Below, in pieces: positions 11,649 through 15,085 of a stretch of 17,550 bases of DNA. This DNA comes from Burkholderiales bacterium (GTDB lineage Bacteria; Pseudomonadota; Gammaproteobacteria; Burkholderiales; JAEUMW01), in contig JAEUMX010000061.1 in NCBI GenBank assembly GCA_016791285.1, forward strand, positions 1 to 17,550. Reading direction: 5' to 3'. Below the pieces are notes generated by a model that saw nothing but the letters and a program-made list of their open reading frames with translations, was not told where the DNA came from and did no database searches. Position 1 is the first letter of the stretch. The number at the start of each line of letters is the position of its first letter. The position numbers and the translations under genes are program-made.

Positions 11649-12077
11649 CTAGAGCTGAACGGTCGTGGGTTGCTGGGCGCCATGCGGATGATCGGAACCC
11701 GCATAGATCTTCAGTTTGCGAAACATCGCCGAACCAAGAGGGCCCTTGGGCAGCATTCCCTTGACCGCATGCTCGAGCACCCGTTCCGGGTGGCTCGCGT
11801 GCAGTTTGGCGAAGGTCGTCGAATACAGTCCGCCAGGATAGCCGCTGTGGCGGTAATACGTCTTCTGAGCGGCCTTGTTACCCGTCACCCGCAGCTTGTC
11901 CACGTTGACGACTACGATGTAGTCCCCGGTGTCCACGTGCGGCGTGTACACCGCCTTGTGCTTGCCGCGCAGGCGGCTCGCGATCTGCGAGGCGAGTCGA
12001 CCCAGCACCTGTCCCGTGGCGTCCACCAGCAACCACTCCCGCTTGGTCTCGTGTGGCTTGGCGGAGAAAGTCTTCAT
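11649..12077 (-). CDS. rplM: 50S ribosomal protein L13
   Basis: 142 aa starting [20 protein letters not shown], the usual length and start. Conserved blocks include [24 protein letters not shown] and GMLPKGPLG. An in-frame ATG nine bases upstream (12086) is possible but less usual for the family. The Shine-Dalgarno is weak. It is first in the rplM-rpsI operon, behind a near-consensus promoter that gives a leader of about 38 nt. Confidence 0.99.
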
Positions 12078-12121
12078 TGTGGCCATTCGAGTCGTGTCTG
12101 CGCGTACGCGAAAAGGCGCGA

Positions 12122-12187: not shown

Positions 12188-12218
12188 AAAAAAAAAGCGC
12201 AACCGGGAGGCTGCGCTT
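12188..12218 (-). terminator. Intrinsic terminator of the candidate small RNA
   Basis: Minus strand: AAGCGCA pairs with TGCGCTT (12218-12212 with 12201-12195), extended inside by a CC/GG pair after one mismatch. The Ts opposite nine As (12188-12196) form the tail. On the plus strand no T-run follows the stem, so the direction is clear. Confidence 0.88.
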
Positions 12219-12282
12219 AATTCCACCAAAGGAGGAAGATGGAGGAGACAACACGTAACCACTCAGGCAGAGCGATCACGTG
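12188..12282 (-). ncRNA. Candidate anti-Shine-Dalgarno small RNA (about 95 nt)
   Basis: A complete small-RNA layout with no ORF. A promoter (TTGATT, 17 bp, CATAAT) predicts a start at about 12281. A hairpin begins there: 12282-12270 pairs with 12264-12252 in 13 consecutive pairs around a TGCCT loop. Three of these pairs are G-U on this strand and would be mismatches on the other, which supports the minus orientation. A CU-rich linker (about 12248-12228) carries TCTCCTCC and then CTTCCTCCTTT, the latter complementary to AAAGGAGGAAG and resembling the 3' end of 16S rRNA. The terminator follows. CU-rich anti-SD small RNAs that block ribosome binding are known in other proteobacteria; membership of a known family is untested. 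Confidence 0.6.
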
Positions 12283-12287
12283 AGGTC

Positions 12288-12316
12288 ATTATGGCGCTGC
12301 AGCAACGAAAAATCAA
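12288..12316 (-). promoter_or_regulatory. Promoter of the candidate small RNA
   Basis: TTGATT (12316-12311) and CATAAT (12293-12288) with exactly 17 bp between. The -35 element has five of six matches and the -10 element five of six. It abuts the 5' end of the divergent 6S RNA candidate, so the two RNAs may share or compete for RNA polymerase here. Confidence 0.6.
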
Positions 12317-12325
12317 GCTTTTTTT

Positions 12326-12478
12326 GTGCGCCGCAATGTCTCTCCCTCGAAGCCCCCTGAGCCTGGAACATATCTATGTTTAACAGCTAGATAACTCACT
12401 ATCCCCTGCCTCGATAGTTCATCCTGACTGGGGATTCGTTCCCCTCTTGGCTTTGTTGAGAGGTTTTGCGTTGCGCTG
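12326..12478 (+). ncRNA. ssrS: Probable 6S RNA
   Basis: 6S RNA mimics an open promoter and sequesters sigma70-RNA polymerase in stationary phase. The fold is visible by hand. A closing helix pairs 12328-12336 with 12466-12476 (9 bp, two bulged Ts) and continues through CTCTC (12340-12344) with GAGAG (12458-12462). AAGCC (12350-12354) pairs with GGCTT (12449-12453). A large central bubble follows. Its 3' side carries a small hairpin GGGGA-TTCGT-TCCCC (12430-12444), as in E. coli 6S. An apical stem uses ACTATC/GATAGT (12398-12403 with 12413-12418). The 5' strand contains CCCCTGAGCC, identical to the E. coli 6S product-RNA template region. Exact ends are uncertain and the helix is shorter than the 184 nt of E. 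coli. osmC lies downstream on the same strand. Confidence 0.72.
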
Positions 12479-12553
12479 CAACGAACATCGTCCGGGGCGC
12501 GGCGTGGTATCGATTAGAATTGAGGTCCATCATCGCCGATCCAGGAGGTCGCA

Positions 12554-12988
12554 ATGAAGGCGCGCATCAAGTGGCTCGAGCAGGCAGCCTTTCTCGGCGA
12601 GACCGAGAGCAGCCACACCCTTGTCATGGATGGCCCCCCGGAGGGAGGTGGACGCAATCTCGGCCCCCGCCCGATGGAGACCGTGCTCCTGGGCACCGGC
12701 GGCTGCACTGCTTACGACGTGGTCCACATCCTCAAGAAGGGTCGCCAGCCGATCAGCGACTGCGTCGTGGAGATCGATGCCGAACGTGCGCCGGACGACC
12801 CGAAGGTCTTTACCCGCATCCACTTCCATTTCATCGTGAGCGGCGGAGGTCTCAGCGCCCGGCACGTCGAGCGCGCAATCAGCCTGTCGGCCGAGAAATA
12901 CTGCTCGGCATCGATCATGTTGGGCAAGACCGCCGACATCACCCACGATTTCGAGATCGTCGACACGACCTCGCCCCCCACAGCCTGA
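12554..12988 (+). CDS. OsmC family peroxiredoxin-like protein
   Basis: 144 aa, cytosolic. Start ATG with AGGAGGT six bases upstream. OsmC/Ohr proteins reduce organic hydroperoxides with two cysteines; here C51 (in LLGTGGCTAYDVV) and C117 (in SAEKYCSASIML) are in the expected places. The GRNLGPRPMETVL segment contains the family's conserved arginine region. The sequence resembles the YhfA-like OsmC branch more than Ohr, so a peroxide role is likely but not certain. A -10-like TAGAAT at 12515-12520 could start a short message; transcription through the upstream 6S RNA is also possible, as E. coli 6S is co-transcribed with its neighbour. It converges with the phaM-like gene. Confidence 0.92.
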   Translation: MKARIKWLEQAAFLGETESSHTLVMDGPPEGGGRNLGPRPMETVLLGTGGCTAYDVVHILKKGRQPISDCVVEIDAERAPDDPKVFTRIHFHFIVSGGGLSARHVERAISLSAEKYCSASIMLGKTADITHDFEIVDTTSPPTA

Positions 12989-13178: not shown

Positions 13179-13502
13179 TCAGGACTGTGAAGGATTGGAG
13201 GCTGCCGCATGGATCGCTTCCGCGGAGCTTCGTACCGCTTGTGCCGAGGTCCGGACGGCTTCGGCAGAGGCGCTGATTGCCTGCAGCCCGGACTTCTGCA
13301 TCTCGAGGGTCTGAATGGTGACCTGGAGCATTCTCAGGTTCATCGAGAGCCAACCCTCGACCGCCTTCAGTTCCGTGATCTTCCGCTCGATCTCGGCAGG
13401 GTCCACTGTCGGCGTCAGCAGGCCCGGCAGCGGTATGTTGAGCGGGTTCCACATTTTCTGAATCAACTCGAACATTTCGGTCATGGTGGATTCGCTGGAC
13501 AT
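13179..13502 (-). CDS. PhaM-type polyhydroxyalkanoate granule regulatory protein
   Basis: 107 aa from ATG 13502, which has AGGAG seven bases upstream; a longer frame adds 13 unsupported residues. PhaM proteins of betaproteobacteria bind PHA synthase and DNA and control granule number and distribution. The diagnostic core is visible at about 33-68: DPAEIERKITELKAVEGWLSMNLRMLQVTIQTLEMQKSGL is that region, an amphipathic helical hairpin. The tail is Ala/Ser rich (repeats of SAEAVR/SAQAVR/SAEAIH) and lacks the long Lys/Ala-rich PAKKA-like C-terminus of Ralstonia PhaM, so DNA binding may be missing. It may be transcribed with the DUF4864 gene 104 bp upstream. No other PHA gene is in the window. 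Confidence 0.8.
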   Translation of the reverse strand: MSSESTMTEMFELIQKMWNPLNIPLPGLLTPTVDPAEIERKITELKAVEGWLSMNLRMLQVTIQTLEMQKSGLQAISASAEAVRTSAQAVRSSAEAIHAAASNPSQS

Positions 13503-13606
13503 CGGTATCTCCTCGGGAAAGCGGTGGGACGAAAACGACATGCTGGGATAACAGCAGATATGGCCGCGCCGACGGTCGCCACGCCATTCGTGAGCGGAAC
13601 CTCGAT

Positions 13607-14080
13607 TCAGGTTGCAAACTGTTTCGATTCGAGGAGGTGACAGCCACTGATCCGCCAGCTTCGATTCGGCTGCCGCTCCATCGAAAAGACGGCGATGCTG
13701 ACCGCGCCATCCAGCGCGATCACTTCAACTGGTTGGACAGGTGCGCCATCGAGCATCGAAGGCTTGAGGAACCGAAAAGCGCGCGGACGATAGACAGCGC
13801 TGTATTCGGTGCGCACCATGTCCATGAAGTCATCGGCGGATTCGAACACCCGCCGGACCCCGGGGGATGTCAGGGAGAAGGCAACGTCACCGTCGTTTAG
13901 GCGGAACGCGTCCATCTGCTTCGCGATCACAACCTGGATCGCCCGCCAGTCCCCTGCACCCAATCGCATCGATTTCGCGGCCGCGCCGCTGGCAGCTGTC
14001 AAGGCTGCCACTGCAACCATGCCAATCAGCAGGCGACAGATTCCGTTGGAAATGCGCAGAGCGGATCCCATGCATTGCAT
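13607..14080 (-). CDS. Exported DUF4864 domain protein
   Basis: 157 aa. An N-terminal signal peptide (about 1-35: basic start, hydrophobic LLIGMVAVAALTAASG, then AAA-KS cleavage region) implies export to the periplasm. The mature domain starts DWRAIQVVIAKQMDAFRLND and contains SPGVRRVFESADDFMDMVR and VYRPRAFRF, which match DUF4864, a small family of unknown function with a cystatin/NTF2-like feel. AGGGA is 10 bases before the first ATG; a second ATG lies nine bases in. The initiation region is unusual: the SD lies in one hairpin and the ATG in a 15-base palindrome. It sits between the lytic transglycosylase and phaM-like genes on the same strand. Confidence 0.85.
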   Translation of the reverse strand: MQCMGSALRISNGICRLLIGMVAVAALTAASGAAAKSMRLGAGDWRAIQVVIAKQMDAFRLNDGDVAFSLTSPGVRRVFESADDFMDMVRTEYSAVYRPRAFRFLKPSMLDGAPVQPVEVIALDGAVSIAVFSMERQPNRSWRISGCHLLESKQFAT

Positions 14081-14861: not shown

Positions 14862-15085
14862 CGAATGACCTCCTTTCTGTGTTCGAGGGTACGCGTATGA
14901 GCCGGATGGTCCGTAGGGGTTGGACCGAAAGGCTCAGGAGAGCGCGGACCCTGCGCGCCGGCGATCAACCGCCAGCGCCCCCGATCAGTCTCTGCGCAAT
15001 CCTTGCTGCAGAGTTGTTTCGGGCTTCAGGAAAGCGCCTGCGGGACAGGCGGGCGAGATCTCTTATTGCATTGCAATATCACTAT
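14862..15085 (-). other. Long structured leader of the lytic transglycosylase gene
   Basis: Between the predicted start (about 15079) and the ATG at 14861 no ORF is supported. On the minus strand three hairpins can be drawn: CGCCTG/CAGGCG (15051-15035), CTCTGC-A-GCAA with TTGC-GCAGAG around a GGA loop (15013-14990), and GGTCC/GGACC (14926-14908). The GGA in a loop is the kind of site CsrA/RsmA proteins bind, but one site is weak evidence. Confidence 0.4.

What the first reader, a model, noticed from the sequence alone, without database searches (positions are those of the whole stretch)
12188..12316. Candidate anti-Shine-Dalgarno small RNA, possibly undescribed
Seen: on the minus strand, a TTGATT-17-CATAAT promoter, a 13-pair hairpin starting at the predicted first base, a CU-rich single-stranded linker with two anti-SD blocks (TCTCCTCC and TTCCTCCTTT), and an intrinsic terminator with nine Ts. 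The second block resembles the 3' tail of 16S rRNA. Three G-U pairs make sense only on this strand. Inference: an abundant RNA that competes for SD sequences and lowers translation of many messages, perhaps in balance with the neighbouring rplM-rpsI operon or with 6S RNA.
Basis: partly seen in the sequence, partly recalled or inferred. Interest (0 to 1): 0.72.

Follow-up and report, generated by a model that had tools for sequence, protein, structure and literature searches.

The report
Ribosome-site-mimicking small RNA of PHB bacteria
This is a roughly 94-letter regulatory RNA of a known betaproteobacterial family that pairs with ribosome-binding sites of messages; unexpectedly, its promoter carries what looks like the switch that cells use to sense their stored bioplastic.

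Summary
On the minus strand 12282-12189 lies a predicted ~94-nt three-hairpin RNA with two anti-Shine-Dalgarno blocks and an intrinsic terminator (fold z -6.8). It is not undescribed: it passes the Rfam cut-off for RF02278, Betaproteobacteria toxic sRNA (55.1 bits, cut-off 50), the family of B. cenocepacia NcS27. Block 2 is a hairpin loop, not an open linker. The copy sits in a recurrent OsmC - sRNA - rplM locus (51 relatives have a copy beside rplM and/or osmC). The 5' hairpin, outside the Rfam model, keeps its pairing while its sequence diverges. New here: the promoter carries the core of the operator of PhaR, the PHB-granule-sensing regulator, 10 nt upstream of -35. Of 77 relatives with analysed copies, 39 of 53 PhaR+ genomes have this core within 150 nt upstream of a copy, against 1 of 24 where PhaR was not found. 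Phasin promoters have it (28 of 30); 6S promoters of PhaR+ genomes do not (0 of 17). Best reading: a known kind of anti-SD sRNA, probably controlled by PHB storage. Transcription and PhaR binding are untested.

The parts
12327..12335 (-). PhaR-operator-like core TGCGGCGCA, 10 nt upstream of the -35 hexamer; right arm CACAAAAA
   Evidence: consensus YTKNTGCRNYGCANMAR from PMC12849132 (passage); inferred site, binding untested
12311..12316 (-). -35 hexamer TTGATT
12288..12293 (-). -10 hexamer CATAAT
12189..12282 (-). predicted sRNA, about 94 nt (ends inferred from promoter and terminator)
12252..12282 (-). stem-loop 1 (13 pairs), not part of the Rfam RF02278 model
12189..12250 (-). RF02278 Betaproteobacteria toxic sRNA core, 55.1 bits (cut-off 50)
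12241..12248 (-). anti-SD block 1 TCTCCTCC (partly in the stem of hairpin 2)
12228..12237 (-). anti-SD block 2 TTCCTCCTTT, the loop of hairpin 2 (stem 12243-12238 / 12227-12222)
12195..12218 (-). stem-loop 3, intrinsic terminator, followed by T9 (12196-12188)
12554..12988 (+). OsmC family protein, recurrent divergent neighbour
   Evidence: synteny
11649..12080 (-). rplM (ribosomal protein L13), recurrent downstream neighbour with its own promoter-like site 12151-12122
13179..13541 (-). PhaM-family PHA granule regulatory protein: suggests that the host is a PHB maker
   Evidence: NF043076, 82.2 bits, cut-off 38

Best explanation
The locus encodes a trans-acting anti-Shine-Dalgarno sRNA of the RF02278 / NcS27 kind. 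It is the copy linked to OsmC and rplM that many relatives carry. The RNA exposes two CU-rich blocks, one between hairpins 1 and 2 and one in the loop of hairpin 2. These pair with SD regions of a set of mRNAs and block ribosome binding, as shown experimentally for published relatives and inferred here. Hairpin 1 is a conserved structural cap that may be removed by processing, as reported for NcS27 and S17 (inferred here). Transcription is probably controlled by PhaR, which would bind a palindrome just upstream of -35 as it does at phasin promoters. When PHB granules form and sequester PhaR, the sRNA and the phasins would be switched on together, and the sRNA would damp translation of carbon-uptake and catabolic messages. 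The PhaR step and its sign (repression) are inferred.
For: Family. Structure: z -6.8. SL1 with z <= -2 in 61 of 115 copies, among which median SL1 identity is 0.27 against 0.70 for the core. In a 6-row alignment chosen for gapless SL1, 88.5% of cells pair, 7 of 13 pairs change on both sides, and 0 of 500 shuffles reach the covariation score. PhaR: core TGCRNYGCA within 150 nt upstream in 44 of 80 copies from PhaR+ genomes against 1 of 31 from genomes where PhaR was not found; shuffles 50 of 1600; 0 of 79 at -1000 to -850. By genome 39 of 53 against 1 of 24. 6S promoters of PhaR+ genomes 0 of 17. Phasin upstream regions 28 of 30; in 17 of the 30 loci the core lies 8-12 nt before a TTG hexamer, the layout seen in the window and in 17 PhaR+ copies. 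Chromobacterium, two Vogesella and a Neisseriaceae MAG: 4 of 4 rplM-linked copies carry it. In 4 of 6 loci with more than 900 nt to osmC the site is at the sRNA. PhaM is encoded about 0.8-1.2 kb from the sRNA promoter. Literature fit: B. cenocepacia ncS03, ncS05 and ncS27 rise 8.0, 6.9 and 4.3-fold in glucose medium (passage); S. meliloti PhaR represses the sRNA MmgR (passage).
Against: No transcript data for this organism, and its genome is not held. In the window alone the full 17-base PhaR consensus with 3 mismatches is at chance (21 against 20.1 expected), so the claim rests on relatives. Unlinked copies in PhaR+ genomes have the core in only 12 of 37. Five of 5 Burkholderia-like copies beside osmC and rplM lack the exact core (PhaR was not searched for in those genomes). 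NmsR-type second copies lack it within 150 nt, 4 of 4. The core is also above background downstream of the sRNA (14 of 80) and at -300 to -150 (9 of 80), and upstream of osmC (16 of 38). Genomes are related, so the association is not a set of independent events, and 'PhaR not found' may include incomplete genomes. S17 was not toxic in E. coli BL21 (passage).
Confidence: 0.7

Rival explanations
1. Same anti-SD sRNA, but the TGCRNYGCA core is bound by another factor or belongs to the divergent osmC gene, and the sRNA is controlled by growth phase or nutrient signals through other proteins.
For: osmC upstream regions also carry the core in 16 of 38 PhaR+ loci, and the window has a separate core at 12472-12480 nearer osmC. 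Copies in genomes without PhaR use another promoter element, TATTAGA-type, 23 of 32, so other inputs exist.
Against: Of 38 PhaR+ loci with osmC upstream, 27 have a site within 150 nt of the sRNA and 17 within 150 nt of osmC, 14 of the latter being the same site because the gap is short; in the other 3 each gene has its own site; 15 loci have an sRNA-side site more than 150 nt from osmC. Unlinked copies have it too (12 of 37). The motif follows PhaR presence and marks phasin promoters in the same layout.
Confidence: 0.25
2. A general SD-titrating RNA that lowers bulk translation by competing with 16S rRNA.
For: Block 2 resembles the 16S anti-SD tail (recalled sequence). RF02278 members were toxic in E. 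coli (passages), and E. coli expressing both NmsRs or NmsRB was not viable (passage).
Against: Relatives act on defined targets: TCA-cycle mRNAs, phenylalanine and tyrosine catabolism and carbohydrate transport, transporters and a sigma54 activator. S17 expression did not impair exponential growth of E. coli BL21 and only modestly impaired entry into stationary phase. A ~94-nt RNA would need ribosome-scale abundance (inference).
Confidence: 0.1
3. An element of the rplM-rpsI operon (leader, attenuator or autoregulatory site) rather than a free RNA.
For: Recurrent position upstream of rplM (43 relatives with a copy beside rplM).
Against: The terminator with T9 precedes a separate rplM promoter-like site, TTGACA-18-TATACT. 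63 of 115 copies have no rplM or osmC match in the roughly 3 kb fetched (some contigs end early). Published relatives are free 57-92-nt RNAs.
Confidence: 0.03
4. Chance structure, no gene.
For: None beyond the absence of expression data.
Confidence: 0.01

Closest known systems
RF02278 Betaproteobacteria toxic sRNA; B. cenocepacia NcS27 / ncS03 / ncS05 / ncS62 'double-hairpin RNAs' (PMC5688073, PMC4603805, passages)
   Same: Passes the Rfam cut-off; two CU blocks, hairpin 2 and terminator; NcS27 is 92 nt and can be processed. Burkholderia-like genomes (my label, from size and gene content) carry a copy between osmC and rplM (5 of 5 genomes inspected).
   Different: The window copy has a clear 13-pair hairpin 1 outside the Rfam model and a promoter with the exact PhaR core. 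NcS27 itself was not fetched by name, so orthology rests on locus and length.
Neisseria NmsRA/NmsRB = NgncR_162/163, RF02877 (PMC5362039, PMC9973317, passages)
   Same: Three stem-loops, one anti-SD block between SL1 and SL2 and one in the SL2 loop; full-length alignment 40 bits, E 7e-5.
   Different: Below the RF02877 cut-off of 52. NmsRs lie between dsbB and lrp. Chromobacterium, two Vogesella and a Neisseriaceae MAG have an NmsR proper (86-97 bits) and, separately, an rplM-linked RF02278-type copy, so the two are paralogues.
B. pertussis S17 (PMC11722255, passages)
   Same: CU-rich Sites 1 and 2, terminator, SD targeting; the authors relate it to RF02278.
   Different: Located beside coq7; the long form is ~190 nt and processed; that paper's text has no occurrence of PhaR, PHB, phasin or polyhydroxy.
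S. meliloti MmgR, RF00519 (PMC12542648, PMC8401924, passages)
   Same: PhaR (AniA)-repressed Hfq-dependent sRNA with a PhaR palindrome in its promoter; CU-rich segment in the Rfam consensus.
   Different: 21.8 bits against a cut-off of 41: a parallel, not a member.

Membership tests
RF02278 Betaproteobacteria toxic sRNA | covariance score at or above the curated cut-off | tested here: met
   55.1 bits, cut-off 50, model 1-64 of 64
RF02278 Betaproteobacteria toxic sRNA | hairpin with CU-rich anti-SD loop plus intrinsic terminator | tested here: met
RF02278 Betaproteobacteria toxic sRNA | growth inhibition when expressed in E. coli | not testable with these tools
   reported for the family
NcS27 orthologue (copy between osmC and rplM) | same locus in Burkholderia-like genomes | tested here: inconclusive
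NmsR, RF02877 | score above the cut-off of 52 bits | tested here: not met
   40 bits; NmsR copies proper in four other genomes score 86-97
NmsR, RF02877 | dsbB-lrp locus, tandem copies | tested here: not met
   window locus is OsmC / rplM, single copy in the window; NmsR location
MmgR / alpha-r8, RF00519 | score above the cut-off of 41 bits | tested here: not met
   21.8 bits
PhaR regulon | palindrome core TGCRNYGCA at the promoter | tested here: met
   12327-12335, 10 nt before -35
PhaR regulon | full consensus YTKNTGCRNYGCANMAR | tested here: inconclusive
   3 mismatches, all in the arm far from the promoter; no better than chance in the window alone
PhaR regulon | host encodes PhaR | tested here: inconclusive
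   host genome not held; closest fetched relative G036 encodes PhaR; PhaM in the window
PhaR regulon | PhaR binds and alters expression | not testable with these tools
   needs EMSA and a phaR deletion

The most novel reading that the evidence does not exclude
Anti-SD sRNAs of the RF02278 kind are a second output of the PHB-granule sensor PhaR across Betaproteobacteria, with one weak gammaproteobacterial case. PhaR controls them through operators placed as at phasin genes, and some phasin mRNAs carry a related CU hairpin in their 3' UTR. Stored polymer would then be read out as translational repression of carbon intake, mirroring PhaR-MmgR of alphaproteobacteria and explaining glucose induction of NcS27-type RNAs.
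Probability: 0.6. Interest if true: 0.7.

Novelty: new member of a known kind. Interest (0 to 1): 0.5.

Why it matters
The RNA itself extends a known family. If the PhaR link holds, it gives the 'toxic' anti-SD sRNAs of Betaproteobacteria a physiological switch, stored PHB; in the passages seen their expression conditions are reported (biofilm, glucose, starvation; virulence mode for S17), but no PHB regulator. It would also make testable how PHB storage is coupled to translation in species such as Cupriavidus necator, where a review states that the role of riboregulation remains undeciphered (PMC8401924, passage).

Tried and rejected
Rejected: rplM leader or attenuator (own terminator and separate rplM promoter-like site); chance hairpin; membership in NmsR or MmgR (scores below cut-off); the core belonging only to osmC. 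No plasmid record matches the region. The own genome is not held. tblastn of the PhaM protein against the fetched loci found nothing, so conserved linkage of phaM to the sRNA is not shown.

Rows and alignments dropped: a 27-row alignment (A1) contained one row cut at wrong coordinates (L082), and A1 was used for no count. A2 and A3 were misaligned in SL1 and not counted. The six rows of A4 were chosen because their SL1 aligns without gaps. Two copies in L189 lack CTCC or CCTC in their first 20 nt and were kept in the counts. Of the RF02278 places listed were analysed; the listed places left out all scored under 45 bits, among them most of the phasin-adjacent ones. The phasin control is the best phasin match of each of 30 genomes, out of a longer capped list. 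The 6S control is 30 of 54 matches. All papers were read as passages or listings only; Sass 2019 (NcS27), Kimelman 2012 and Lagares 2017 were not held.

Full report
Observation. The fold shows three hairpins, not two hairpins and a linker: block 2 is the loop of a six-pair hairpin 2 and block 1 runs into its stem.

Identity. cmscan gives one match over the cut-off in the whole window: RF02278, Betaproteobacteria toxic sRNA, 12250-12189 minus, 55.1 bits. At a relaxed threshold the full-length RNA also aligns with Neisseria NmsRb end to end, 40 bits against a cut-off of 52, and with MmgR at 21.8 against 41. So it is a member of RF02278, works like NmsR, and is not a member of NmsR or MmgR by score.

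What the literature shows (passages read, not whole papers). B. cenocepacia has four RF02278 RNAs, ncS03, ncS05, ncS27 (92 nt) and ncS62. In planktonic culture ncS27 overexpression slows growth and silencing of the CU region speeds it. The authors compared them with NmsRs, and three homologues share an upstream motif that the text does not identify (the supplementary figure was not seen). NcS27 affects amino acid and carbohydrate genes (review). NmsRs repress TCA-cycle mRNAs through two anti-SD regions. B. pertussis S17 is a related RNA that represses a sigma54 activator.

Distribution and locus. RF02278 matches occur in 53 of 80 relatives of L004's genome, 99 of 150 relatives of G036 and 51 of 61 relatives of G124 (the three sets overlap), with up to 13 copies in one genome, and in 0 of 14 control genomes in each search. 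I analysed 114 copies from 77 genomes plus the window; listed places left out scored under 45 bits. 51 of the 114, from 51 genomes, have rplM and/or osmC in the fetched stretch, 35 have both; with the window 52 and 36. The closest fetched relative is L102 (rplM 89%, rpsI 92%, OsmC 84% identity). Burkholderia-like genomes, so called by me from size and gene content, have a copy in the same place, 5 of 5 inspected, so the window copy is most likely at the NcS27 locus; B. cenocepacia itself was not fetched by name.

Hairpin 1. A significant hairpin (z <= -2) directly before the core is present in 61 of 115 copies: 28 of 52 linked and 33 of 63 unlinked, the window included. Within these 61 it has 8-18 pairs, its ungapped identity between copies is at chance (median 0.27), and the 30-nt core is at 0.70. 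In a gapless six-row alignment that includes the window, 88.5% of cells pair, 7 of 13 pairs change on both sides, and sliding the partner by 1-3 columns drops pairing to 27-41%. The number of pairs with a both-side change alone is not exceptional (72 of 500 shuffles reach it). Structure, not sequence, is kept where the hairpin exists; 54 of 115 copies do not show it at this threshold.

Promoter. Upstream of -35 the window has TGCGGCGCA followed by CAAAAAAAGC and TTGATT. The R. eutropha PhaR palindrome is given as YTKNTGCRNYGCANMAR, with one site directly upstream of the phaP1 -35 (PMC12849132, passage). PhaR (PF07879) was found in 102 of 150 relatives and phasin (PF09361) in 98 of 150. The core occurs within 150 nt upstream of 44 of 80 copies from PhaR+ genomes and 1 of 31 from genomes where PhaR was not found; the 1 is G128, a small genome in which a phasin gene was found. 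Three genomes untested at that point were resolved later (G003 and G005 PhaR+, G004 not), giving 46 of 82 copies against 1 of 32, and 39 of 53 genomes against 1 of 24 (Fisher p 6e-9; relatedness is not corrected). Among linked copies it is 33 of 44 against 1 of 7. Controls: dinucleotide shuffles 50 of 1600, 150 nt at -1000 to -850 0 of 79, 6S promoters 0 of 17 in PhaR+ and 1 of 13 in other genomes, rpsI upstream 0 of 35 and rplM upstream 5 of 36. Positive control: the 300 nt before the phasin domain in 28 of 30 loci, inside the domain 0 of 30; two of the 30 loci, both with the core, come from genomes without a PhaR match (G105, G128). Of 46 PhaR+ copies with the core, 17 have it 8-12 nt before a TTGN hexamer, against a background of 11.5% of positions, and 8 have it 31-36 nt before the RNA core, where it would overlap -35 of the short forms. 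The first layout was seen in 17 of the 30 phasin loci.

Results against. The core is above background also downstream of the sRNA (14 of 80) and at -300 to -150 (9 of 80), and upstream of osmC (16 of 38). Of 38 PhaR+ loci with osmC upstream, 27 have a site within 150 nt of the sRNA, 17 within 150 nt of osmC, 14 of these the same site; 15 have an sRNA-side site more than 150 nt from osmC; where the gap exceeds 900 nt the site is at the sRNA in 4 of 6. Unlinked PhaR+ copies have it in 12 of 37 only. In Burkholderia-like genomes 18 of 29 best copies and 8 of 20 copies from five genomes (the two sets sharing some places) have it, and the 5 copies beside osmC and rplM there lack the exact core; apart from G124, PhaR was not searched for in these genomes. 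Of four genomes with an NmsR proper (86-97 bits), the NmsR copy lacks the core within 150 nt in 4 of 4, while the rplM-linked copy has it in 4 of 4; two of these four rplM-linked copies are nearly identical. In the window alone the full motif is at chance; the 9-base core occurs 7 times in the window against 2.6 expected.

Wider link to PHB. The window encodes PhaM (13182-13541 minus, NF043076, 82.2 bits). Several weak RF02278 matches lie just downstream of phasin genes or near phaR (compare). In L192 the order is phasin, CU hairpin with terminator, then a gene that reads like phaB (by eye). Among 30 phasin genes, 10 have GTCTCC or CTCCTCC within 150 nt after the stop, against rpsI 4 of 74, osmC 3 of 117, rplM 0 of 75 (often rpsI coding sequence) and shuffles 98 of 1500; at least two of the ten (L155, L159) look incidental by eye. 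In the gammaproteobacterium Ectothiorhodospira mobilis a match of 39.1 bits, below cut-off, has the core between what look like its -35 and -10, and in Marichromatium gracile one of 31.7 bits lies after a gene that reads like phaB (by eye).

Mechanism. Shown here: family, structure, conservation, locus, motif and its co-occurrence with PhaR. Inferred: transcription, SD pairing (by published relatives), PhaR binding, and repression as its sign. The model is that PHB granules titrate PhaR, so that phasins and the anti-SD sRNA are switched on together, and the sRNA then holds back translation of carbon-intake messages. Induction of ncS03, ncS05 and ncS27 in glucose medium by 8.0, 6.9 and 4.3-fold fits. 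S. meliloti PhaR repressing MmgR is a precedent in another class; R. eutropha PhaR also activates phaP3 (title and passages), so the sign is open.

Novelty. The RNA is a new member of a known kind. I saw no report of PhaR control of RF02278-type RNAs: the joint search for PhaR, NcS27, RF02278, double-hairpin RNA, NmsR and MmgR returned 8 papers, none with PhaR together with an RF02278-family term. Of the papers that mention these RNAs, PMC5688073 has no PhaR or polyhydroxy, and PMC11722255 and the review PMC10987360 have no PhaR, PHB, phasin or polyhydroxy. The passages shown of two PHA reviews name MmgR, ArrF and Rsm RNAs but no betaproteobacterial sRNA (12 of 18 places shown). One search listed 15 of 33 papers, most of them not opened. 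The library holds open-licence papers only, and Sass 2019 was not held.

Noticed in passing
L087, L095, L099, L107, L110, L112, L113, L127 and others, 80 nt upstream of the RNA core: In genomes where PhaR was not found the sRNA promoters carry another element, ATATTAGATAATTCTAATA-like, spanning the -10 (23 of 32 copies against 4 of 82 in PhaR+ copies); its regulator is unknown.
   Followed up: partly
L133, L134, L142, L145, L148, L192 and others: Some phasin mRNAs end in a CU-rich anti-SD hairpin plus terminator, possibly 3'-UTR-derived sRNAs (10 of 30 phasin genes by motif).
   Followed up: partly
L253-L281, about 35-70 nt upstream of the RNA core: Many Burkholderia-like copies share a second upstream block resembling CCATAGGGGTTTTTACT, of unknown meaning.
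   Followed up: no
L303, L304, L306, L310 and L307, L311, L312, L313: Chromobacterium, two Vogesella and a Neisseriaceae MAG carry both an rplM-linked RF02278-type RNA and a separate NmsR proper (86-97 bits RF02877).
   Followed up: yes
window 12472-12480, 14071-14079, 15067-15075: Further TGCRNYGCA cores, one between the sRNA and osmC and one upstream of the elongation-factor-G-like gene (named by eye); 7 in the window against 2.6 expected.
   Followed up: no
window 13179-13541 minus: PhaM-family PHA granule protein (NF043076) without a Pfam hit at E 1e-3.
   Followed up: partly
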